Assembly: GCF_019913785.1 (NCBI RefSeq)
Contig: NZ_JAIOHK010000021.1
Coordinates: 1 to 64,000 of the forward strand
Direction of reading: 5' to 3'
Length of the DNA stretch: 64,000 bases
DNA from: Altibacter sp.
Lineage (GTDB): Bacteria; Bacteroidota; Bacteroidia; Flavobacteriales; Flavobacteriaceae
Below are positions 27,142 to 62,114 of this stretch, piece after piece (the first letter of the stretch is position 1; every line of letters starts with the position of its first letter). Below the pieces are notes generated by a model that saw nothing but the letters and a program-made list of their open reading frames with translations, searched no databases and was not told where the DNA came from. Both the position numbers and the translations under genes were made by a program.

Positions 27142-29700
27142 TTATGAAAGCAATTCCGAGGGAGCAATTCCAAAGCGTTCCTTAAACTTTTTATTGAAAT
27201 AGGGAGAAGAAAGAATACCCACATCGTAGCGAACTTCGCTAAGCGTAAAGAATGTTCTTTGTTGCAATAATTGATAGGCTTTTTGAAGTCGAATTTCCAG
27301 TATAAACTGTACCGGTGTCATTCCTGTATACTGTTTTAAAATACGTGTGAGTTGACGCTGGCTATAATTTACACCTGCAGCGAGACTGTCTATTTTAAAA
27401 TCTTCATTGCTTAGGTTTTCAATCACAATAGCTTCTATGGTTTTTAGCAGTTTTTGATCGGAACTTTCATTGTCGTTTACCAAGTCTTTATTTTGTAATT
27501 CCCAAGCCTCCCTAGCTCTTTTGTTATTTAGTAAATTTTCAATGCGCGCGGAAAGTTCATTTTTGTTGAAGGGTTTGATGATGTAATCGTCAATTCCTAG
27601 TTTAAAGCCTCGGATTTTATCTTCTTCCAGAGTTTTTGCTGAAATAAGAATAAAAGGTATGTTTTTATACTTGGCATCTTCGTTTAATTTTTTTCGCAAT
27701 TCGAAACCGTCCACTTTGGGCATCATTATATCTGAAGTAATTAAATCGAAGGATTCCTGTTTTATTTTTTGTATGGCCTCTTCGCCGTCAAAAGCAAGGG
27801 TGCAATGGTGTTTTTCGGATAGGATTTCCTTTAAATAAGAAGCCATCTGTGGATTGTCTTCTACAATTAATATATTTGATTTTATTACAGATTTTGCTAC
27901 TTTTTTAGGTGCTTCCGAAGGAGTGATTCCTTTTGGAGGTAATACCTTTTGTGGAATAGCTTCCGAAGCTATTTGAGGAGCAGGAAGGGTAAATATGAAT
28001 GTACTTCCTTTTCCATAATCGCTTGTAACTGTAAGAGTGCCGTCCATTATTTGCGCAAGTTCTCTTGAAAGTGAAAGTCCAATACCCACTCCGCCCACCG
28101 CTTCGGCATTTTGTGATTGGTAAAAGCGTTCAAATATTTTTTCGGTTTCATCATAATGAATTCCCTCTCCTTGATCGGTTACTTGTAAAATAAGGATTTC
28201 ATTTTCAAGCTCACAGTGTACTTTTATTTCTTTTTTTGAAGGGGAGTATTTAATCGCATTGGAAATAAGGTTATTGATGATTTTCTCGTTTTTTTCTAAA
28301 TCTATTGACGTATAATAATTTTTGGGAATTTCAGAATGATATACCAGTGAAATCTCCTTCATCTGGGCTAATGAGCCAAATGAAAGTGCAATACGTTTTA
28401 AAGTTTCATCTAGAAGAACTATTGTTTTGTTAAGGGTAATTTTGTTTTTCTCAAACTTGAGAAGTTCCAGTATTTCATTGGCATCGCTCGTGACCTTTTT
28501 GCTGTTTTCTAATGCAATGGAAATGTTCATTTTTGCTTTTTCCGTATGATCAAAATTTTCCAACGCAAGGTTTAAATTACCCGAAATTAGCGTTAATGGG
28601 GTGCGAATTTCGTGTGCGATATTACCTAAGAATTTACTTCGTAAATCGTTGATTTCTTGCTCTTTTTGGAGTTCAGTTTCAACCAAAAGTTTTTTTCTTT
28701 TCTGCTTGTTAGTTAACCACATAAAGATCCCTAAAGCCAGTAATAATAATGCAATAGCAGAAAAAATATAGAGGTTACGCGTGTTGTTTTGTTTGGCAAT
28801 AATGAGTTGCTGCTCAGCGATGGCTCTGTCTTTTTGTTCGGTTTTATATTTGGCCTCAGCTTCGGTAAAACCCGAAAGTAATTTCTTCTCTAAATAGGCC
28901 TTTGTACTATCTCCATACTGTCGGTAATATATTGAAGCCTCTTCAAAATTTTTAACAAGCTCATTTTTTTCTGCAAGGTTTCTGGATGAAACTAAAAACT
29001 GTGCCTGATCTTTTAGTTTAATCGCTAAAAGATGTGATTTTTTATAATATGCTAAGGCCTTGTCAATTTGCCCTCCTTTTACGAACACATTGGCTATATT
29101 ATTAAAAACAGAAGAAAGGTATTGCTCATCGGTGGTTTCATTAAAAATATTTTCGGCTAACTTACAGTAATTAAAGGCTTTTTCAGGTAAATTGAGTTCT
29201 ACTAATGCATTGCATTTATGCATATAACTTTCAGCTAAATCTTCTTGATCTTTTGTAAGTAATGAATAATGGATACATTGATCCGCTAAAGAATCAAGTG
29301 TTTTTTCTTTCCCTTTAACATCATATAAACAATAATATTTAAGAGAATACCCTCTGAAAATTAATTTGTTATCTCCTGTCCTTAAAGCAGATGAAATAGT
29401 AGAGTCTGCATATTTTAAACTTAATAAATCTTCTTCAAATAGATACATTCTAGATAAGCTATAGTAATTCTTGGTATACCAAATGTCTATAGTATCTTTT
29501 ACGAACTCCTTTTTTTGTTCTAGAAAATTGAGTAATGCATAATGAAGCGTAGCGGCCTTTTTATATTCTCCGAGGTTAATATGGTTTTGTGCTTCTTTAA
29601 ATTTATTTACATAATTGGTAAATGTGATATCCTGCCCAATGCAATTATGAGAAAGTAATACCAAAAAAAAGGGCAAAAGCCATTTGATGAAATACTTCAT
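27142..29700 (-). CDS. Hybrid two-component regulator: TPR sensor, histidine kinase, receiver, AraC-type DNA-binding domain
   Basis: TPR-like N-terminus, LGNIAHEIRTPLTLISGNL H-box, NILIVEDNPQMASYL receiver, C-terminal SQRQLTRILKQYTGMTPVQFI...SPYFNKKFKERFGIAPSELL. Confidence 0.93.
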   Translation of the reverse strand: MKYFIKWLLPFFLVLLSHNCIGQDITFTNYVNKFKEAQNHINLGEYKKAATLHYALLNFLEQKKEFVKDTIDIWYTKNYYSLSRMYLFEEDLLSLKYADSTISSALRTGDNKLIFRGYSLKYYCLYDVKGKEKTLDSLADQCIHYSLLTKDQEDLAESYMHKCNALVELNLPEKAFNYCKLAENIFNETTDEQYLSSVFNNIANVFVKGGQIDKALAYYKKSHLLAIKLKDQAQFLVSSRNLAEKNELVKNFEEASIYYRQYGDSTKAYLEKKLLSGFTEAEAKYKTEQKDRAIAEQQLIIAKQNNTRNLYIFSAIALLLLALGIFMWLTNKQKRKKLLVETELQKEQEINDLRSKFLGNIAHEIRTPLTLISGNLNLALENFDHTEKAKMNISIALENSKKVTSDANEILELLKFEKNKITLNKTIVLLDETLKRIALSFGSLAQMKEISLVYHSEIPKNYYTSIDLEKNEKIINNLISNAIKYSPSKKEIKVHCELENEILILQVTDQGEGIHYDETEKIFERFYQSQNAEAVGGVGIGLSLSRELAQIMDGTLTVTSDYGKGSTFIFTLPAPQIASEAIPQKVLPPKGITPSEAPKKVAKSVIKSNILIVEDNPQMASYLKEILSEKHHCTLAFDGEEAIQKIKQESFDLITSDIMMPKVDGFELRKKLNEDAKYKNIPFILISAKTLEEDKIRGFKLGIDDYIIKPFNKNELSARIENLLNNKRAREAWELQNKDLVNDNESSDQKLLKTIEAIVIENLSNEDFKIDSLAAGVNYSQRQLTRILKQYTGMTPVQFILEIRLQKAYQLLQQRTFFTLSEVRYDVGILSSPYFNKKFKERFGIAPSELLS

Positions 29701-29842: not shown

Positions 29843-31897
29843 ATGAAAACTTTACAGTATGTTATACTTGCATTAATTTTATGCGGAATAACACATGCAC
29901 AGGTAGGAATAGGGACAGTTACTCCCAACGCACAACTTGATATTGTTTCCACCAATCAAGCAACACCGGCAAACACCGATGGTATTTTAATCCCTAAAAT
30001 AGATGAGTTCCCCTCAACGGCACCTAATGCAGCACAAGATGGTATGATGGTCTTTGTAACGGGTTTGGGTTCACCTTCAAAAGGGTTTTATTATTGGAAC
30101 AATTCTACGTCTAGTTGGGTTTCCTTAACTGACATCGGAGTTCAAAAAATTAATGATTTAAGCGACGGAAAGTCGGATAATGATGGTAGTAATGACGGAT
30201 CTTCTATTTTTTTGGGTGTAAATTCAGGAACAAATGACGATGAGACAGATAACAGAAATGTAGGGGTTGGATACCAATCTCTTTATTCAAATGTGGGTGG
30301 AGGGTATAATCTTGCTATGGGATATAGAGCTATGCGAACGAATGTTTCAGGGAGTTGGAACACTGCTGTGGGATATGAAACATTACACTTAAACCAAATA
30401 GGAACCGATAATACTGCTTTAGGCTATCAAGCCCTTTATAATAATATCGATGGCAATTATAACACAGCATTGGGAGAATGGGCGCTTTATTTTAATTCTA
30501 GTGGAAGCAATAATACAGCCGTTGGTTATGGTGGATTGCGCAATAATACTATTGGTAATGGTAATACTGCATTTGGTTATGCCTCTTCTTGGAACAATAC
30601 ATCGGGTAATGCTAATGTCTCTTTTGGTTTTTATTCATTATTTGCAAATACGATCGGGTCTTGGAACACTGCCATTGGGAGTGAAACTTTACGAAGCAAT
30701 ACTATTGGAGGGAATAATTGTGCCATAGGGTATCGAGCCATGTATAGTAACACATCGGGTAATGGTAATGTAGTCTATGGTAATTTAGCGATGTATTCTA
30801 ATATAGGGGGTGTAGATAATACTGCCATGGGATTTAACGCTATGTATACTAATGCGGCGGGTTCGCAAAACACTGCAATTGGTAAAGATGCATTATATAA
30901 AAATAATGGTTCATTTAATACGGCTATTGGATATACGGCATTAAACAATAACACAACAGGTTTCCGAAATACCGCGATAGGCGCTACAGCTATGTATCAA
31001 AATGTATCGGGAATTTATAATACGGCAATAGGCAGTAGGTCATTAACTGGTAATACCGATGGAGACTTTAATACTGCTATTGGGGCTGAAGCAATGGTAG
31101 TCAATACTACAGGGAATTACAATACCGCCGGAGGATACCATTCGCTCTACCTTAATCTTACAGGAGAGCGTAATTCTGCTTTTGGGTTTAGATCGCTTCG
31201 TGATAATACAAATGGTATTAGAAATACTGGAATTGGCTACGAAGCGCTTAGGAGTAATACCACAGGTATTAACAACACGGCTATTGGAGATAACGCTATG
31301 GCGAATATTGTTTCTGGTAATCACAATACTGCCATGGGTTATTTTGCATTTTCTACAGTATCAAATATTGCTAATTCTATGGCATTAGGTTATAATGCAC
31401 AAGTTAATTCAAGTAATACCATTGTATTAGGAGATAACAATATTTCATCTATTGGAGGATTTGCCAATTGGACAAATATATCAGATGGCAGGTTCAAAAC
31501 TAATATTAGACAAAATGTAAAAGGAATTGATTTTATCATGAAATTAAGACCGGTAACCTATCAATTAGATGTTGATGCCATTGCAGCTTTTTACAGAACT
31601 CCAGACAGTGTAAGGCTAAAGGATACCGAACAGTCAAAGGTATCTGAAATTCAAATAGGATTCATTGCACAAGAGGTTGCCAAAGCAGCTTCTGATCTTC
31701 AGTTTGATTTTCATGGTATAGATTTTCCTGAAAACGAAAATGATCATTACGGCTTGCGATACGCAGAGTTTGTACCTGTATTGGTGAAAGCACTACAAGA
31801 ACAACAAAAAGAAATTGACAACTTAAAAAAAGAGGTTTCAGAATTAAAAAATCTGGAAGCACGAATTCAAATACTAGAATCAAAATTAAATAGGTAA
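29843..31897 (+). CDS. Secreted repeat protein with C-terminal tail-fiber/S74 intramolecular chaperone domain
   Basis: Signal peptide; 21 tandem ~17-aa repeats; SDGRFKTNIRQNVKGIDFIMKLRPVTYQL and terminal coiled coil. Confidence 0.9.
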   Translation: MKTLQYVILALILCGITHAQVGIGTVTPNAQLDIVSTNQATPANTDGILIPKIDEFPSTAPNAAQDGMMVFVTGLGSPSKGFYYWNNSTSSWVSLTDIGVQKINDLSDGKSDNDGSNDGSSIFLGVNSGTNDDETDNRNVGVGYQSLYSNVGGGYNLAMGYRAMRTNVSGSWNTAVGYETLHLNQIGTDNTALGYQALYNNIDGNYNTALGEWALYFNSSGSNNTAVGYGGLRNNTIGNGNTAFGYASSWNNTSGNANVSFGFYSLFANTIGSWNTAIGSETLRSNTIGGNNCAIGYRAMYSNTSGNGNVVYGNLAMYSNIGGVDNTAMGFNAMYTNAAGSQNTAIGKDALYKNNGSFNTAIGYTALNNNTTGFRNTAIGATAMYQNVSGIYNTAIGSRSLTGNTDGDFNTAIGAEAMVVNTTGNYNTAGGYHSLYLNLTGERNSAFGFRSLRDNTNGIRNTGIGYEALRSNTTGINNTAIGDNAMANIVSGNHNTAMGYFAFSTVSNIANSMALGYNAQVNSSNTIVLGDNNISSIGGFANWTNISDGRFKTNIRQNVKGIDFIMKLRPVTYQLDVDAIAAFYRTPDSVRLKDTEQSKVSEIQIGFIAQEVAKAASDLQFDFHGIDFPENENDHYGLRYAEFVPVLVKALQEQQKEIDNLKKEVSELKNLEARIQILESKLNR
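30257..31324 (+). repeat. 21 tandem 51-nt coding repeats (17 aa, one 16-aa unit)
   Basis: Units such as NTAIGYTALNNNTTGFR / NTAIGATAMYQNVSGIY; unit 13 (NTAIGKDALYKNNGSF) is one residue short. Confidence 0.9.
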
Positions 31898-40307: not shown

Positions 40308-41846
40308 CTAATCCTCGACCGGAAAAACAATACTTTCGTAGGCGCCTGCATCCGAAGGGTTTGCTCTGGTAGTTCCATTGAGATCAATGGCGACAGGAGG
40401 TGTGGTAGGTGTAATTCCCAGATTTTCGGCACCTGAGGTTCCCATCTCTATATTGAAATTGTTTAAGTTTTTGTTCTGAAATACCGGATCTACATTCCGA
40501 AGTATGTTTTCATATAAATTGGTATCGCTGAATAGATAATTGGGGTCATCTTCAAAATCGCCATTTGGATCTTCAAATCGAATCAAGCTATTCGTAAACC
40601 TAAAATCGAAATCGGCTCCCGGGATATTGAAAAGACCAAGCTCTCTTTGTTCACTTCCGTAAATAATACAATTGTTGAAACGGGCAAACATATCTACCCC
40701 ATTGTTCTCATCCAGTACATTGTCCAGCTGAACCGTTGGGAAACTTCTGAAGCTGCCGGTCCAATAATTTGCAAAGGTACAATGATTGAAGGTATAGGTA
40801 CCACCAATAGAACAGGCCAATGCCGACTGCCCCGCATTGTTAATAACCATATTCTCACCGTAGACGTTTCCACTTCTTGCCAATAATCCTACATTGGCTG
40901 TATTATAGATTTGCACATTTTTAAGGGTTAAGGTGCGATCTCCGTCGTTGCTGTCCATTAAGATTCCCACCACATTATTTTTAATAGTGGTGTATTCAAA
41001 TTCGTTGTTGGTGCTCCCTGCTGTAAGCCAAATGGTGCCCCATTGCCCCGGAATATCGGCAAATCCCGGTTCCAGGCGATCTCCTTCAAAAATGATCTCA
41101 TTTTCCATGAGTTCAGGATCGTTGCTGGGTAAACCAATCGATTTGATCGATCCGGTATTCGCTACTAAAATACCGCTATTGGCATGGAAGTGCACACGGG
41201 CTCCAGGTTGCACGGTGAGTGTTTTACCAACATCCACAGCGGCATAGCCGTAAATAACATAAGGTTTTTCATTGGTAAAGGTCAATTCGGAATCATCCAG
41301 AAAGAATCCTTCAATCAAAATATCGTTACCATCGTCGTCCATCCCCAAGTTTAAGGTTTCAAAAATACCATCGCCCAAGTCTGCGGGGAAAAGGAAAACC
41401 GCATCCTGAACCAAGGTCACCAATTCAACTTTTTGTTCGTTGGCACCACTGTCAAAAAGAATCTGGTCTGTATATATGAATGCATTATCGGGATTCGGAA
41501 AATTAGCTATATCAATGGTTGTTTCAACAAAAATGAAGATACTGTCCTTTGCCAATACCTGTACATTTTCAAACACTTTCCCCGGTACGCCGTCGACGTT
41601 CAGTCGATAGTAGGAAGCCTCTCCTTCGCCCAAGCGCAGTGTGGGTATATTGATATCTTCGTCGCTTCGGTTGTAGACTTTTAAATTGTAAGTGCTAGAG
41701 CCAATATTTGAAAAAATGGTGTCTAGGTATACCGTATCACTTGAAAACTCAAGGTTTCCTGTACTGGGAACACTTTCAAAATCATTACGGCAAGAACTCC
41801 ATAAAACGAGGCACGAGAGTAGTGCCAATCCGTATAAATACTTCAT
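40308..41846 (-). CDS. Lipoprotein, right-handed parallel beta-helix type
   Basis: Lipobox-like LVLWSSC; NNVVGILMDSNDGDRTLTLKNVQIYNTANVGLLARSGNVYGENMVINNAGQSALAC. Confidence 0.75.
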   Translation of the reverse strand: MKYLYGLALLSCLVLWSSCRNDFESVPSTGNLEFSSDTVYLDTIFSNIGSSTYNLKVYNRSDEDINIPTLRLGEGEASYYRLNVDGVPGKVFENVQVLAKDSIFIFVETTIDIANFPNPDNAFIYTDQILFDSGANEQKVELVTLVQDAVFLFPADLGDGIFETLNLGMDDDGNDILIEGFFLDDSELTFTNEKPYVIYGYAAVDVGKTLTVQPGARVHFHANSGILVANTGSIKSIGLPSNDPELMENEIIFEGDRLEPGFADIPGQWGTIWLTAGSTNNEFEYTTIKNNVVGILMDSNDGDRTLTLKNVQIYNTANVGLLARSGNVYGENMVINNAGQSALACSIGGTYTFNHCTFANYWTGSFRSFPTVQLDNVLDENNGVDMFARFNNCIIYGSEQRELGLFNIPGADFDFRFTNSLIRFEDPNGDFEDDPNYLFSDTNLYENILRNVDPVFQNKNLNNFNIEMGTSGAENLGITPTTPPVAIDLNGTTRANPSDAGAYESIVFPVED

Positions 41847-55419: not shown

Positions 55420-57525
55420 TTACGATATGTAATTCCATATATTCTTGTATTTGGCAAGTTGTACAAAGGTTTTTTTAATCGGAAGGTTTTCAGGTAGCGA
55501 CAAAGAAGGATCGCCTTTTAATACCTGAAAGGCATAACTTCGCGCTATCTTTAAAATTTCCGAATCCTTAACAATGTCTGCAATCCGTAGATTTAGTACA
55601 CCACTTTGCTGCGTTCCCATTAGATCTCCCGGACCTCGTAGCCTGAGGTCTACTTCAGCTATCTCAAAGCCATCTCCCGTACGAACCATGGTTTCCAGGC
55701 GTGTTTTGGCATCGGCTGAAAGTTTGTGGCTTGTCATTAAGATGCAATAGCTTTGCTCAGCTCCTCTCCCTACGCGGCCCCTTAGCTGATGTAATTGAGA
55801 CAATCCGAAACGTTCCGCACTTTCAATCACCATCACACTGGCGTTGGGCACATCAACACCTACTTCAATAACGGTAGTAGCTACCATGATTTGTGTTTGG
55901 CCTTTGACAAAACGTTCCATTTCAATTTCCTTGTCGGCCGGTTTCATTTTTCCATGCACGATGGAGACCTGATACTTCGGAAGTGGAAATTCACGAACAA
56001 TGCTTTCATAGCCATCCATGAGATCTTTATAATCCAGGGCTTCACTTTCCTGAATTAATGGGTATACCATATAGACCTGTCTACCCTTCGAAATTTCATC
56101 TCGTACAAACCGAAAAACCTTCAGCCTATTCGCGTCAAAACGATGCACTGTTTTTATGTCTTTCCGGCCGGGTGGAAGTTCGTCAATAACACTAATATCG
56201 AGATCGCCATATACACTCATGGCAAGGGTGCGGGGGATAGGGGTGGCGGTCATCACCAAGACGTGCGGAGGGTATTCATTTTTATGCCATAATTTACTGC
56301 GTTGTGCCACGCCAAAACGATGCTGTTCATCGATAATAGCAAGCCCTAAATTTTTAAATTTAACCTTGTCTTCCAGTAGGGCGTGGGTGCCAATGAGCAT
56401 GTCTAATGCACCATTTTCAAGTTTTTCGTGAATTTCCTTTCTTTTTGAAGTTTTAGTTGAACCAGTGAGTATTTCTATACTGGTATTCAAATTGTTACAT
56501 AATTCAAGTAAACCATTGTAGTGCTGGACTGACAAAATTTCAGTCGGCGCCATTAAGCAGGCTTGAAAACCGTTGTCAAGTGCTATTAACATTGACATTA
56601 ACGCCACTATGGTCTTCCCCGAACCTACATCTCCTTGTAAGAGTCGGTTCATCTGGGCATTGCTCCCCAGGTCGTTCCTAATTTCTTTGATGACACGCTT
56701 CTGAGCATCGGTTAATTCGAAGGGTAAATGTTCGTTGTAAAAGGTGTTGAAAAGCGGTCCGACTTTTTCAAAAGGATATCCTTTAATTTTCGCTTTATGA
56801 AGTAAATTTTTTCGAATTAATTGCAGTTGGATATAGAACAATTCTTCAAATTTTAATCGGTATTGAGCGCGTGCTAAAAGCGATTGACTTTTCGGAAAAT
56901 GTATGTTGAAAAGCGCCTCGTTTTTTGGGAGCAATTTGAGCTGTTCCAAAAGGGGTTTTGAGAGACTTTCGGCAAAGCCATTTTTTGCTTCCAAAAACAG
57001 CTGTTGCATGAGTCCGTTGACCACTCGATTTGTAATGCCACTGTTTGATAATTTTTCGGTGGAAGGATACACCGGCTGCATGGCAGATCGTATACTTTTT
57101 TCATGCGCTTCCAGCAATTCCATTTCGGGGTGAGGCATCGAAAAAGCGCCATTGAACCAGTTACATTTTCCGAAGATAACATAAGGTACATTAATCTTCA
57201 GGTTTTCCTTGATCCACTTATGTCCACGGAACCATACCAACTCCATTGTACCTGTTTCATCTACAAATGTTGCCACCAGTCGTTTGCCACGCTGTTGCTG
57301 CACAGTTTTTATATGCGTAATCTTACCAATGATCTGTACTTCGGCATTTGTCTGCTGTAGTTGAGCAATTTTATAATACTGCGTCCGGTCCAGATACCGA
57401 TTCGGGAAAAGATTCAATAAATCCTGAAATGTATGAATACCCAGCTCCATTTTGAGCAGATTGGCGCGATTGGGGCCAACACCCTTTAAATATTCAATTG
57501 GCGTTTGCAGGAAATTGGTATTCAT
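55420..57525 (-). CDS. recG: ATP-dependent DNA helicase RecG
   Basis: LQGDVGSGKTIVALMSMLIAL, IIDEQHRFGVAQR, MTATPIPRTLAMSVYGDLD, QLRGRVGRGAEQSYC. Confidence 0.97.
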   Translation of the reverse strand: MNTNFLQTPIEYLKGVGPNRANLLKMELGIHTFQDLLNLFPNRYLDRTQYYKIAQLQQTNAEVQIIGKITHIKTVQQQRGKRLVATFVDETGTMELVWFRGHKWIKENLKINVPYVIFGKCNWFNGAFSMPHPEMELLEAHEKSIRSAMQPVYPSTEKLSNSGITNRVVNGLMQQLFLEAKNGFAESLSKPLLEQLKLLPKNEALFNIHFPKSQSLLARAQYRLKFEELFYIQLQLIRKNLLHKAKIKGYPFEKVGPLFNTFYNEHLPFELTDAQKRVIKEIRNDLGSNAQMNRLLQGDVGSGKTIVALMSMLIALDNGFQACLMAPTEILSVQHYNGLLELCNNLNTSIEILTGSTKTSKRKEIHEKLENGALDMLIGTHALLEDKVKFKNLGLAIIDEQHRFGVAQRSKLWHKNEYPPHVLVMTATPIPRTLAMSVYGDLDISVIDELPPGRKDIKTVHRFDANRLKVFRFVRDEISKGRQVYMVYPLIQESEALDYKDLMDGYESIVREFPLPKYQVSIVHGKMKPADKEIEMERFVKGQTQIMVATTVIEVGVDVPNASVMVIESAERFGLSQLHQLRGRVGRGAEQSYCILMTSHKLSADAKTRLETMVRTGDGFEIAEVDLRLRGPGDLMGTQQSGVLNLRIADIVKDSEILKIARSYAFQVLKGDPSLSLPENLPIKKTFVQLAKYKNIWNYIS

Positions 57526-57656
57526 AAAACGAATTTAACAAATCCCTCTAACCTGAAGAATGTATCTTTATATAATTCCTTGTATTGATACATAATTAGC
57601 ATGAAAATGTGGGTATTTTTTGGTATTTTCGACCACTCAAATAAACTCAATTTACA

Positions 57657-59045
57657 ATGAAGGTAATTTTCAATACAAAGGCATTCGCTTTTTTTCTTTT
57701 AATTTCTTCTTCTTTACTATTTATCAACTGTAGTAATGATGAAACCGGTACCACATTGGACCTAAGCCCACAATTTACGGTAGATGTAACGGCGCTGGAT
57801 TTTGGTGAGGAAGTACTTAATGAGGTGTCAGAAAGGCAATCGTTCGTAATCGACGCAAGCAATTTGACGAATGAATTGATCGTTACCTCTTCCGAAGCAC
57901 AATTTGAAATTTCAAGAGACGGGAATGTCTATACCAATACGATTTCATATACTGTCGCCAATGCAAATATCGATGATAAAATGGTCTATGTGCGCTTTGC
58001 TCCAAAGAATCAGATTCTAGGAGACATCACAGGAACCATCACGATTTCGAGCGAAGAAGCCGGTACCGAAACCATTTCATTGACCGGAACCAGTGTTTTA
58101 GCTGTAGAAGAGACCACGACCATTACCACCTTTCAACAAGTACACCACGCCTTTGGAGAAAATCTGTCACAGAGCCATACCAATGTATTCCAGTTTCCTG
58201 AGGACATGACACAGATTTCCAATATTACCATGTTTGTGAAATTGGAATGCCCCGACGGTGGCTGCAATGCCTGGGATGTGTATGCAAACATTGCAGTTAA
58301 GAATACAGCAACCTCCACTTGGATGGAAATAGGAAGATATATCACACCCTATGGGGTGGACAACCACCAATTGGAAAGAGGTTTCGAAATTGACGTAACC
58401 GATTTTAAATCTCTGCTTACAGGCAGTGTTGAACTGAAATCGTTTGTAGAAGTTTGGGGATCGGATGGATGGAATGTTTCCGTCGAGTTTGATGTGACCA
58501 CAGGAGGAGAGATCGAATATCCGTATTCTGCTATTTCGGAAGTACTACAATACAACAGACATTCCTTAGATGGTATCCCATACGGGGTTCCTAACGAATT
58601 TGATGTCGATAAGACCATTTCTATTCCGCAGAATGCCGAAGCGACTTTTCTGCGAACCATTATTACGGGTTGGGGACATGCAACACCAAACGACCCGGGA
58701 GGAAGACCTTGTGCCGAATGGTGTTTTAGAAGACATCACATACTTATTAACGGAGCAGAGACGTTTGAGCATTATATGGGCCCCATTGGTTGTAGTTCAA
58801 ATCCGGTGGCACCCCAAGGTGGAAATTGGGCGCCCGATAGAGCCGGTTGGTGCCCCGGGATGTCGGTTCCTAATAGAATAGATATGTTCGATCCTGCCAT
58901 GGCAGGTCAGACTTTTACATTTGAATATGATCTAGAGGACTGGACAAGTGATAGCGGAGGAACTAACAACGCTTACTATGCAATTTCTACCTTTGTGGTC
59001 GTTAAAAGTAATTCTCCTATTGAAACTCCAATGGTCACAGAATAA
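57657..59045 (+). CDS. PNGase F-like peptide-N-glycosidase lipoprotein with N-terminal beta-sandwich domain
   Basis: N-terminal CSNDE after signal peptide; C-terminal region with ECPDGGCNAWDVYANIAV, ITGWGHATPNDPGGRPCAEWCFRRHHILIN, NWAPDRAGWCPGMSVPNRID. Confidence 0.9.
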   Translation: MKVIFNTKAFAFFLLISSSLLFINCSNDETGTTLDLSPQFTVDVTALDFGEEVLNEVSERQSFVIDASNLTNELIVTSSEAQFEISRDGNVYTNTISYTVANANIDDKMVYVRFAPKNQILGDITGTITISSEEAGTETISLTGTSVLAVEETTTITTFQQVHHAFGENLSQSHTNVFQFPEDMTQISNITMFVKLECPDGGCNAWDVYANIAVKNTATSTWMEIGRYITPYGVDNHQLERGFEIDVTDFKSLLTGSVELKSFVEVWGSDGWNVSVEFDVTTGGEIEYPYSAISEVLQYNRHSLDGIPYGVPNEFDVDKTISIPQNAEATFLRTIITGWGHATPNDPGGRPCAEWCFRRHHILINGAETFEHYMGPIGCSSNPVAPQGGNWAPDRAGWCPGMSVPNRIDMFDPAMAGQTFTFEYDLEDWTSDSGGTNNAYYAISTFVVVKSNSPIETPMVTE

Positions 59046-59067
59046 ACAACATTTAACTATTCAAAAG

Positions 59068-59097
59068 CAGGTATTGTAAGAAATACCTGCTTTTTTT
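59068..59097 (+). terminator. Rho-independent terminator
   Basis: gcaggtatt-gtaag-aatacctgc followed by T tract. Confidence 0.85.
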
Positions 59098-59145
59098 ATG
59101 AATAATCTATACCTTTAGTATACCGGACTGTAGCCTGTTATTTCT

Positions 59146-61203
59146 ATGAAAGTTGTATCTCTTTTTCTGCTATTTCTATATGGGCACATCTTTGCCCAAC
59201 AAGTACAAGATGTAGATTTTCTAAAAGCAGAAGCGACTATCCAGCCAATTTTTTCTGAAAAAAAGGTAAAAGGCACTGTAAAATACACATTTAAGGTGCT
59301 TCAGAAGACCGATTCGGTGTATCTGGATGCCATTAATATGCAAATAACCAAGGTCGCATTGGAGGGGGTTCAGGCGAAGGCTGAAGCCAATAAAATCTGG
59401 TTGATTGGCCCTTTTGTTAAGGATCGCGAATATGTGGCATTTTTTAATTACGAAGCCAATCCGAAGCAAACGATGTACTTTATCGAAGATCAAGTTTGGA
59501 CCCAGGGACAAGGAAAATATACCTCACATTGGTTGCCGAGTATCGACGATATGAACGATAAGATCGAATTCGATCTAACCATTGCAGCACCTATGGGTAC
59601 TACGGTCATGGCAAACGGAAGTCTCAAGTCGGCTACCGAAAGAAATGGACTCACGTATTGGGATTGGGATATGCAGCAGCCTATGTCCAGTTATCTGGTG
59701 GCGTTTGCCATTGGAAATTTTAAGAAGAAATCGCTTACCTCCACCAGTGGTATTCCTATCGACTTGTATTACCACCCCAAAGATAGCGCGAAGGTAGAAC
59801 CTACCTATCGGTACACCAAGGTGCTATTCGATTTTTTTGAAACCGAAATTGGCCTGCCCTATCCCTGGCAAAATTATAAGCAGGTACCGGTGCGGGATTT
59901 TTTGTACGCCGGCATGGAAAACACCACAGCGACCATTTTTTCGGAAGCGTTTGTAGTAGATTCTATTGGTTTTAACGATCGAAGCTATGTAAATGTCAAT
60001 GCACATGAGTTGGCACATCAGTGGTTTGGTAATTTGGTTACCGAAACCGAGGGCACCCATCATTGGTTGCATGAAGGGTTTGCTACCTACTATGCACTTT
60101 TAGCCGAAAAAAATATCTATGGGGAGGATTATTACTATTGGAAGCTGTATAATTCGGCCGAGCAGCTAATCGAATTGAGTGAACAAGGAAAAGGCGAGTC
60201 CTTATTAAATCCGAAAGCCAGCTCCTTGACTTTTTACGAAAAGGGAGCCTGGGCTTTGCATATTTTGAATGAGTTGGTTGGGGAAGAGGCTTTCTCTGAA
60301 GCCATTCAGAACTATTTGCACCGCCATCAATTTAAGAATGTAACTACTCAGGATTTTTTGAATGAAGTGAAGGCAGTTTCAAACAAAGATATTGCACGAT
60401 GGGAAGCCGATTGGTTGCAACAGAGTGCTTTTAAGGCAGAGCAGGCGTACACTTCATTGATCGAATCGGATTTTATAAGAGATTACTTCGAAGCGACAGC
60501 ATTGCGACGAATACCCCTGTCCGAGAAAATAATTCAGCTAAAGACAGCCCTTACATTTCCTAACGATTTTATAGGGCAGGAAGCGATCTATCAATTGGAC
60601 GGCGAGCCAATTTCAGCAACCATAGCACTTTACAAGAAGGGATTTGAAAGTAATAATTTATATGTGAGACAGGCGATTGCCATGTCCTTAGAAATAATTC
60701 CTAAACAACTTAGGGTGGAATATGAGTCACTGCTTGATGATGCCTCCTATGTGACTCAAGAAGCCGCTTTGTATTTGCTGTGCAGTCAGTTTCCGGAAAA
60801 CCGAACGCTATATTTGGACAAGTTGAAACAGGTAGAGGGGTTTCAGAATAAAAACATTCGACAGCTTTGGTTGTATATTGCTATTAATTCGGATGGATTT
60901 AGCGAGTCTGAAAAAAAGCAGTTTTTTCAAGAACTGGAAGCATATACCACCTCGAAATACAGCTTTGAAGTGAGGGAGCTTGCCTTTGCCTATATGCTTC
61001 AATTTAAGCCCTATTCTGAAGTATTTCTCCGAAGTTTGGTAAATGGATCGGTACATCATTATTGGCGTTTTAGAGATGTTGCGAGGAATATGCTAGCTGA
61101 AGTCATGACCGAAGCAGCCGCTTACGCAACCGTAGTGAGCCTACTGGAGAGCTTTTCAGAAAAAGAACAAAACTATTTAAAGTCTAAATTTGAATTGAAA
61201 TGA
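59146..61203 (+). CDS. M1-family metallopeptidase (aminopeptidase)
   Basis: YAGMENTTATIFSE (GAMEN-like) and HELAHQWFGNLVTETEGTHHWLHEGFATYYALL. Confidence 0.93.
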   Translation: MKVVSLFLLFLYGHIFAQQVQDVDFLKAEATIQPIFSEKKVKGTVKYTFKVLQKTDSVYLDAINMQITKVALEGVQAKAEANKIWLIGPFVKDREYVAFFNYEANPKQTMYFIEDQVWTQGQGKYTSHWLPSIDDMNDKIEFDLTIAAPMGTTVMANGSLKSATERNGLTYWDWDMQQPMSSYLVAFAIGNFKKKSLTSTSGIPIDLYYHPKDSAKVEPTYRYTKVLFDFFETEIGLPYPWQNYKQVPVRDFLYAGMENTTATIFSEAFVVDSIGFNDRSYVNVNAHELAHQWFGNLVTETEGTHHWLHEGFATYYALLAEKNIYGEDYYYWKLYNSAEQLIELSEQGKGESLLNPKASSLTFYEKGAWALHILNELVGEEAFSEAIQNYLHRHQFKNVTTQDFLNEVKAVSNKDIARWEADWLQQSAFKAEQAYTSLIESDFIRDYFEATALRRIPLSEKIIQLKTALTFPNDFIGQEAIYQLDGEPISATIALYKKGFESNNLYVRQAIAMSLEIIPKQLRVEYESLLDDASYVTQEAALYLLCSQFPENRTLYLDKLKQVEGFQNKNIRQLWLYIAINSDGFSESEKKQFFQELEAYTTSKYSFEVRELAFAYMLQFKPYSEVFLRSLVNGSVHHYWRFRDVARNMLAEVMTEAAAYATVVSLLESFSEKEQNYLKSKFELK

Positions 61204-62114
61204 GAGCGTTGGTAATTTCGGGAGGAGGAAGTAAAGGGGCTTTTGCAGGCGGAGTCGCGCAATACCTTATTGAGGAAAAATTTCGCAAGTACGATATATT
61301 AGTGGGCACCTCTACCGGTAGCCTCATGATCTCACATTTGGCGCTGAACAAGATCGAAAAGATCAAAGAGGTATATACGTCTGTGAGTCAGAATAGTATC
61401 TTCAGCATTCGCCCTTTCGTTATAAAAAAGACAAAGTATGGAGGAAAAGAGATTGCCATTGATCATTTTGGGGTGTTACGAAACTTTTTACGCGGCAGTA
61501 AGACCTTTGGTGAGAGTTATAACCTACGGAAATTGATAGAAAACACCTTAACGCAAACCGAATTCAATGAATTAAAATCTAGCCTGAAAGACGTAGTAGT
61601 CACTGTTTCTAATCTTTCATTGAATCAGGTAGAATACAAATCGATCAAAGATTTTGAATACCAAGATTTCTTAGACTGGATCTGGATCTCCTGTAATTAT
61701 ATTCCGTTTATGAGTTTGGTGAAAAAGGAAGGCTGTGAATATGCCGACGGTGGATTTGGTAGTATGGTGCCAATCGAAGAGGCTATTAACAGAGGTGCGA
61801 CCACTGTAGATGTGATCATTCTTGAAACCGAAGTAACCTACTACAACCGATTGCCCTCAAAAAATGTTTTTTCTTTGCTAACCAATATGCATGCGTATAT
61901 GCTTGACCGTGTAGAAAAGCAAAATATTAGAATAGGTAAATTTGTTGCGGGAAATCACGATGCCATTATCAATTTTTATTATACGCCTACCGTGCTAACG
62001 ACAAACTCTTTGATTTTCGACAAAACAATGATGGCAAAATGGTGGGAAAGTGGCTATCAATACGCAAAACAGAAGAACACGGATCTCAACGAGATAAAAG
62101 CCCAGGAAACTTAA
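61200..62114 (+). CDS. Patatin-like phospholipase
   Basis: RALVISGGGSKGAFAGGVAQYL, VGTSTGSLMISHLAL (GxSxG), YADGGFGSMVP (DGG). Confidence 0.92.
   Translation: MRALVISGGGSKGAFAGGVAQYLIEEKFRKYDILVGTSTGSLMISHLALNKIEKIKEVYTSVSQNSIFSIRPFVIKKTKYGGKEIAIDHFGVLRNFLRGSKTFGESYNLRKLIENTLTQTEFNELKSSLKDVVVTVSNLSLNQVEYKSIKDFEYQDFLDWIWISCNYIPFMSLVKKEGCEYADGGFGSMVPIEEAINRGATTVDVIILETEVTYYNRLPSKNVFSLLTNMHAYMLDRVEKQNIRIGKFVAGNHDAIINFYYTPTVLTTNSLIFDKTMMAKWWESGYQYAKQKNTDLNEIKAQET

What the first reader, a model, noticed from the sequence alone, without database searches (positions are those of the whole stretch)
57657..59045. Candidate lipoprotein PNGase F with intact catalytic context and an extra N-terminal domain
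From about residue 154 onward the protein aligns by eye to Flavobacterium (Elizabethkingia) meningosepticum PNGase F. Matching stretches include the Asp context (CNAWDVYANI vs CDEWDRYANV), RPCAEWCFRRHHILIN vs RGCAEWCFRTHTIAIN, and NWAPDRAGWCPGMSVPNRID vs NWAPDRAGWCPGMAVPTRID. The expected catalytic residues fall at D207, E265 and E354; spacings 58 and 89 compare with 58 and 88 for D60/E118/E206 of PNGase F. Unlike the classical secreted enzyme, this one starts with a likely lipoprotein signal (LLFINCSNDE) whose acidic residues after Cys resemble a surface-export signal. It also carries a ~110-aa beta-sandwich (ASH/choice-of-anchor-like) domain. A surface-tethered deglycosylase could act on marine N-glycoproteins.
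Basis: partly seen in the sequence, partly recalled or inferred. Interest (0 to 1): 0.8.

Follow-up and report, generated by a model that had tools for sequence, protein, structure and literature searches.

The report
Lipid-anchored PNGase F on a stalk
This gene almost certainly encodes a membrane-anchored version of PNGase F, the well-known bacterial enzyme that strips N-linked sugars from proteins; it is one ordinary member of a family widespread in flavobacteria, and its relatives suggest that the textbook enzyme is the odd one out for lacking the extra stalk domain.

Summary
ORF 57657-59045 (+) encodes 462 aa. Residues 151-461 match PNGase F over its full length (phmmer E 3.7e-115; 54% identity) and the AlphaFold2 model superposes on 1PGS (TM 0.95 by target, 1.7 Å). 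D207/E265/E354 align with D60/E118/E206 and are invariant in 36 homologues, as are all six disulfide cysteines. Glu at position 118, not Gly, predicts type I specificity (no core alpha1,3-fucose). One correction: Arg61 of PNGase F, which helps hold the chitobiose, is Val208 here (Val in 28 of 36). Another: the ~110-aa ASH-like domain and lipobox Cys are not special to this protein. The Cys is in all 36, relatives carry 0-3 tandem copies of the domain, and PNGase F itself falls inside a group whose other members mostly have it. The gene stands alone (terminator behind it) at a conserved recG-PNGase-M1 aminopeptidase site, cleanly absent from two congeners. The genome also encodes exported GH92, GH2 beta-mannosidase, GH20 and glycosylasparaginase, but the two tested across 400 genomes do not co-occur with PNGase. 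New member of a known kind; modest interest.

The parts
57657..57728 (+). Lipoprotein signal peptide, residues 1-24, lipobox F-I-N-C
   Evidence: Sequence; helix 2-22 in the model; the lipobox Cys is invariant in 36 of 36 aligned homologues.
57729..57761 (+). Lipidated Cys25 and short linker (CSNDETGTTLD); acidic residues at +4/+5, a possible lipoprotein export signal
   Evidence: 27 of 36 homologues have at least two acidic residues at +2 to +6; compare SDDFE of F. johnsoniae and QKDDE of C. canimorsus (PMC5080379). Model pLDDT below 50 at 26-32.
57762..58106 (+). ASH / choice-of-anchor-D type Ig-like beta-sandwich, about residues 36-150, probable stalk
   Evidence: Strands at pLDDT mostly above 90; PF22073 Cep192_D4 in 18 and NF012200 choice_anch_D in 17 of 36 homologues; home-made HMM finds 1, 2 or 3 tandem copies in relatives. 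The window protein itself gives no library hit to it.
58107..59042 (+). PNGase F catalytic domain, residues 151-462 (two jelly-roll halves)
   Evidence: phmmer 1PNF E 3.7e-115; PF09112 and PF09113 above cut-off; Foldseek 1PGS TMt 0.95, rmsd 1.7, 52%.
58275..58277 (+). Catalytic Asp207 (= D60 of PNGase F)
   Evidence: Alignment mapping, invariant 36/36.
58278..58280 (+). Val208 in place of the chitobiose-holding Arg61
   Evidence: V in 28, R in 7, M in 1 of 36.
58449..58451 (+). Glu265 (= E118), the residue that excludes core alpha1,3-fucose in type I enzymes
   Evidence: Invariant 36/36; role from PMC9522356.
58716..58718 (+). Catalytic Glu354 (= E206)
   Evidence: Invariant 36/36.
59063..59097 (+). 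Probable intrinsic terminator: hairpin with a T run, between the PNGase gene and the M1 aminopeptidase gene
   Evidence: Fold of 59046-59115: -19.7 kcal/mol against -5.7 mean of shuffles, z -6.6. The pattern scan missed it, presumably because the T run pairs with the A run before the stem.

Best explanation
A type I peptide:N-glycosidase of the PNGase F family. It is exported by Sec, lipidated on Cys25 and held at the outer membrane, most likely on the outside; the ASH-like domain is a stalk that lifts the catalytic domain off the membrane. [quoted passage not shown] Glu265 should exclude glycans with core alpha1,3-fucose, so high-mannose and alpha1,6-fucosylated or unfucosylated glycans are the expected substrates. 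The gain to the cell is nutrition: proteins opened to proteases, and glycans that the genome's exported GH92, GH2 beta-mannosidase and GH20 could take apart. Shown: sequence and fold membership, catalytic residues, lipobox, modular stalk domain. Inferred: activity, specificity, surface exposure, role.
For: Full-length match to PNGase F; D207/E265/E354, W206, W267, W339, R395 and the six disulfide cysteines invariant in 36 homologues. Type I marker Glu rather than Gly at position 118 (PMC9522356). Lipobox Cys in 36/36, at least two acidic residues behind it in 27/36. Domain copy number 0-3 between anchor and enzyme, and weak conservation of that domain (31% mean pairwise identity against 57% for the catalytic domain), as expected of a spacer. 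Own genome: GH92 + glycosylasparaginase + MFS permease in a row, and GH2 beta-mannosidase + GH20 in a row. Intact, single-copy, kept at one place in several genera.
Against: Arg61, a chitobiose contact in PNGase F, is Val208. The N-glycan pathway link is not borne out by co-occurrence: glycosylasparaginase in 19 of 31 genomes with a type I PNGase against 251 of 369 without (P 0.43), beta-mannosidase in 6 of 31 against 62 of 369 (P 0.80). No SusC/D pair or glycosidase next to the gene. Export to the outer face is inferred from a short motif only.
Confidence: 0.83

Rival explanations
1. The same enzyme, but facing the periplasm, acting on imported glycopeptides after proteolysis.
For: Gut Bacteroides PNGases have been proposed to be periplasmic and to prefer glycopeptides (PMC9522356). 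The motif behind Cys25 (SNDET) is only a loose fit to known export signals, and 9 of 36 homologues have fewer than two acidic residues there.
Against: 27 of 36 do have the acidic cluster; a variable stalk of 1-3 domains makes more sense outside.
Confidence: 0.25
2. The ASH-like domain is a carbohydrate- or protein-binding module that directs the enzyme to its substrate rather than a passive stalk.
For: Similar beta-sandwich modules in other PNGases have been suggested to bind substrate (PMC12381499); Foldseek also lists CBM-bearing sialidases, weakly.
Against: Best profile and fold relatives are MSP/ASH domains, not CBM families; low conservation, Y111 in a YVRFxP strand being the only aromatic other than Phe among the best-kept positions; copy number varies freely.
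Confidence: 0.15
3. Val208 has changed the substrate: the enzyme accepts core-modified or shortened N-glycans poorly handled by PNGase F, or works at another pH.
For: Arg61 is replaced in a conserved way (V in 28 of 36). In zebrafish Ngly2, changes at the equivalent contacts go with an acidic pH optimum (PMC12753239). The motif described for other PNGases has a positive or aromatic residue there (PMC12381499).
Against: All other contacts checked are kept; Val is the common state in this group, so it need not mean a special substrate.
Confidence: 0.2
4. A catalytically dead glycan-binding protein derived from PNGase F.
For: Only the replacement of Arg61.
Against: Catalytic residues, tryptophans and disulfide cysteines invariant.
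Confidence: 0.04

Closest known systems
PNGase F of Elizabethkingia meningoseptica (1PNF, 1PGS, 3PMS), type I
   Same: Catalytic domain over its full length, 54% identity, TMt 0.95; D60/E118/E206, W59, W120, W191, R248 and three disulfides kept.
   Different: R61 is V208; one-residue insertion between E118 and E206; ASH-like domain between lipid anchor and enzyme.
PNGase F-II (4R4X, 4R4Z) and PNGase of Bacteroides (Phocaeicola) massiliensis (7ZGN), type II
   Same: Fold of the catalytic domain; an N-terminal accessory domain.
   Different: 11-14% identity; the accessory domain there is the NBL, another fold; Gly where this has Glu265 (PMC9522356).
PNGase BF0811 of Bacteroides fragilis (3KS7) and BVU_2763 (4QHB), group 1
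   Same: Fold and family; expected exclusion of core alpha1,3-fucose.
   Different: 15-16% identity by Foldseek; Asp at the E118 position; extra beta twist (PMC9522356).
PNGaseL, PNGaseDo and others of PMC12381499
   Same: Mostly orphan genes, accessory beta modules in bacterial PNGases.
   Different: PNGaseL and PNGaseDo carry T9SS signals; this protein has no T9SS sorting domain and is a lipoprotein.
ASH / MSP domains (Cep192 SPD-2 domain 9FH8; choice-of-anchor D NF012200)
   Same: Fold and profile of the N-terminal domain.
   Different: Here a bacterial stalk; no evidence of a shared function.

Membership tests
PNGase F family (PF09112 + PF09113) | Both Pfam domains above cut-off | tested here: met
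   48.0 over 25 and 23.7 over 22.4 bits.
PNGase F family (PF09112 + PF09113) | Two side-by-side jelly-roll halves | tested here: met
   Model superposes on 1PGS, TMt 0.95, 1.7 A.
PNGase F family (PF09112 + PF09113) | Catalytic Asp60 and Glu206, plus Glu118 | tested here: met
   D207, E354, E265, invariant in 36.
PNGase F family (PF09112 + PF09113) | Chitobiose contacts Trp59, Arg61, Trp191 | tested here: inconclusive
   W206 and W339 kept, R61 is V208. Arg61 is not kept in Ngly2 either (PMC12753239), so it is no strict criterion.
PNGase F family (PF09112 + PF09113) | Hydrolysis of the GlcNAc-Asn bond | not testable with these tools
   Needs purified protein.
Type I PNGase (no core alpha1,3-fucose) | Glu (or Asp) at position 118 | tested here: met
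   E265; rule from PMC9522356.
Type II PNGase | Gly at position 118 and N-terminal bowl-like domain | tested here: not met
   Glu265; N-domain is ASH-like; 11-14% identity to 4R4Z/7ZGN.
ASH / choice-of-anchor D domain | Match to a library profile | tested here: inconclusive
   No hit for the window protein itself, but 17-18 of 36 homologues match and the fold agrees.
Bacteroidota surface lipoprotein (LES) | Lipobox Cys | tested here: met
   C25, 36/36.
Bacteroidota surface lipoprotein (LES) | Acidic export motif at +2 to +6 | tested here: inconclusive
   SNDET, two acidic residues; consensus of this species unknown, no control set.
T9SS-secreted enzyme | C-terminal sorting domain | tested here: not met
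   No such hit in Pfam or NCBIfam; the protein ends with the catalytic domain.

The most novel reading that the evidence does not exclude
Most type I PNGases of flavobacteria form a stalked, lipid-anchored group with Trp-Asp-Val instead of Trp-Asp-Arg in the active site, with a substrate range or pH profile that differs from PNGase F; the textbook enzyme would then be a derived, stalkless, Arg-bearing exception rather than the model for the group.
Probability: 0.25. Interest if true: 0.45.

Novelty: new member of a known kind. Interest (0 to 1): 0.3.

Why it matters
PNGase F is the standard reagent for releasing N-glycans, yet its natural role and its closest relatives are little studied. This window gives one clean example of what the common form looks like: anchored, on a stalk of 1-3 Ig-like domains, with Val at a position that holds the glycan in the reagent enzyme. 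That makes a simple mutagenesis question (V208R here, R61V in PNGase F) and a candidate set of new deglycosylation reagents.

Tried and rejected
Pathway link by co-occurrence: tested with glycosylasparaginase and beta-mannosidase over 400 family genomes, no association. Operon with the M1 aminopeptidase: rejected because of a strong hairpin-T terminator between them, and because M1 stays next to recG in congeners without the PNGase. Mobile element or plasmid origin: no match in phages, one distant match (29%) in plasmids. Fetching the E. meningoseptica precursor to see whether PNGase F itself has a lipoprotein signal: not found in the genomes drawn; nearest is L061 at 69%, which has one. Rooting the tree with distant PNGases: the outgroup branch is 5 changes per column long, so the root is not trusted; only the grouping of PNGase F is used. 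Four of the six distant loci fetched as outgroup did not pass my motif filter and were left out. Pattern scan for terminators found none, against the fold. Three paper searches for mutagenesis or a lipoprotein nature of PNGase F gave little beyond PMC12753239.

Full report
What is there. The ORF at 57657-59045 (+) is intact and encodes 462 residues. It is single copy in its genome, a 2.98-Mb draft of 85 contigs. Upstream and divergent is recG (55420-57525, -); downstream in the same direction are an M1 aminopeptidase (59146-61203) and a patatin (61200-62114). Between PNGase and M1 lies a strong hairpin with a T run (-19.7 kcal/mol, z -6.6), so the gene is probably transcribed alone.

Membership. 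phmmer against PDB aligns residues 151-461 with PNGase F over its whole length (E 3.7e-115). Both Pfam halves pass their cut-offs. An AlphaFold2 model from 36 locus sequences has mean pLDDT 87, pTM 0.79, and Foldseek puts 1PGS first (TMt 0.95, 1.7 Å, 52% identity); type II enzymes and the Bacteroides group 1 enzymes follow at 11-16%. Identity over the phmmer alignment is 53.7%.

Active site. D60, E118 and E206 correspond to D207, E265 and E354; all three are invariant in 36 homologues, as are W59, W120, W191, W207, R248, W251 and cysteines 51, 56, 204, 208, 231 and 252 in PNGase F numbering (that these six cysteines form the three disulfides is from my own knowledge of the structure). According to PMC9522356, Glu118 blocks core alpha1,3-fucose, and type II enzymes have Gly there; E265 therefore predicts type I specificity. 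According to PMC12753239, Trp59, Arg61 and Trp191 hold the chitobiose. Arg61 is Val208 here. Val is found in 28 of 36, Arg in 7, Met in 1, and the tree needs three changes at this site. The third place of the motif in other PNGases has been described as positive or aromatic (PMC12381499), so Val is a departure, though a common one in this group. No functional consequence is shown.

Anchor and stalk. The lipobox Cys is invariant in the alignment, and 27 of 36 have at least two acidic residues at +2 to +6, which resembles the export signals SDDFE and QKDDE (PMC5080379). I had no set of periplasm-facing lipoproteins as a control, so this is suggestive only. Residues 36-150 form a beta-sandwich. 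The window protein itself hits no library profile for it, but 18 of 36 homologues hit Cep192_D4 and 17 hit choice-of-anchor D. An HMM made from the single-copy proteins finds two copies in L004, L005, L025, L027 and L028 and three in L024. The domain is much less conserved than the catalytic domain, 31% against 57% mean pairwise identity. A spacer of variable length explains this best.

Which form is the exception. In two trees of the catalytic domain, PNGase F with L046 and L061 forms a branch (100/100) inside a 16-row group (97/95 and 100/98) whose other 13 rows all have the domain. Unless the root lies within that group, the PNGase F lineage lost the domain rather than the window protein gaining it. 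Overall the domain came or went several times (ASH-less label: 5-6 changes). L046 and L061 themselves begin with lipoprotein signals. I could not fetch the E. meningoseptica precursor.

Distribution and place. 65 of 400 family genomes have a match at 1e-10 or better; 31 of them are of this class (E up to about 1e-95). In the genus, two of four genomes have it. The order recG-PNGase-M1 is kept in the window, G003, G094/L002, Mangrovimonas (L004) and several unnamed genera; in Kordia the M1 side is kept. In G001 and G002 recG and M1 lie 87 bases apart with no PNGase: a clean absence, loss being likelier than repeated gain at one place.

Physiology. The genome encodes a GH92 alpha-mannosidase with a lipobox, a glycosylasparaginase (3LJQ, E 8e-114) and an MFS sugar permease side by side, and elsewhere a GH2 beta-mannosidase (2JE8, E 5e-197) next to a GH20. 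On paper these can degrade a high-mannose N-glycan and GlcNAc-Asn. But across the family neither glycosylasparaginase (19/31 against 251/369, P 0.43) nor beta-mannosidase (6/31 against 62/369, P 0.80) goes with the PNGase (not corrected for relatedness). The role in nutrition is therefore plausible, not demonstrated; opening glycoproteins to proteolysis is as good a reason as feeding on the glycan. Diatom glycoproteins carry mainly high-mannose glycans, mostly Man9, in one study that itself used PNGase F (PMC8678454); a type I enzyme should accept these. Whether this organism meets diatoms is unknown.

Verdict. The finding is a new member of a well-known family. What is worth keeping is the group-level picture: anchored, stalked, with Val for Arg61, and the reagent enzyme as the unusual one.

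Noticed in passing
L059:7437-12737 (G000:C32:87436-92736): GH92 alpha-mannosidase lipoprotein, glycosylasparaginase with a twin-arginine-like leader region (MKRRKFIQSAS) and an MFS permease of the fucose/GlcNAc type lie in a row in the window's genome.
   Followed up: partly
L060:6386-11187 (G000:C62:9385-14186): GH20 beta-hexosaminidase and GH2 beta-mannosidase, both with lipoprotein-like leaders, lie end to start.
   Followed up: partly
window 55420-61203; L055, L056: recG and the M1 aminopeptidase are adjacent (87 bp) in two congeners where the PNGase gene is missing; M1 is only 60-67% identical in and near the genus although its neighbours recG and patatin are 84-90%, so it evolves fast.
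   Followed up: partly
L004:9781-11586 (Mangrovimonas): The patatin gene next to M1 is present in two tandem copies.
   Followed up: no
window 29843-31897 (+): 684-aa protein ending in a Peptidase_S74 chaperone-of-endosialidase domain, beside a hybrid sensor kinase with AraC-type output domain (27142-29700, -).
   Followed up: no
window 40308-41846 (-): 512-aa ORF without any Pfam match at 1e-5.
   Followed up: no
L019 (Opitutia MAG, Verrucomicrobiota): A PNGase 60% identical to the window's, with Met after the catalytic Asp, on a short contig of a Verrucomicrobiota MAG; horizontal transfer or mis-binning.
   Followed up: no
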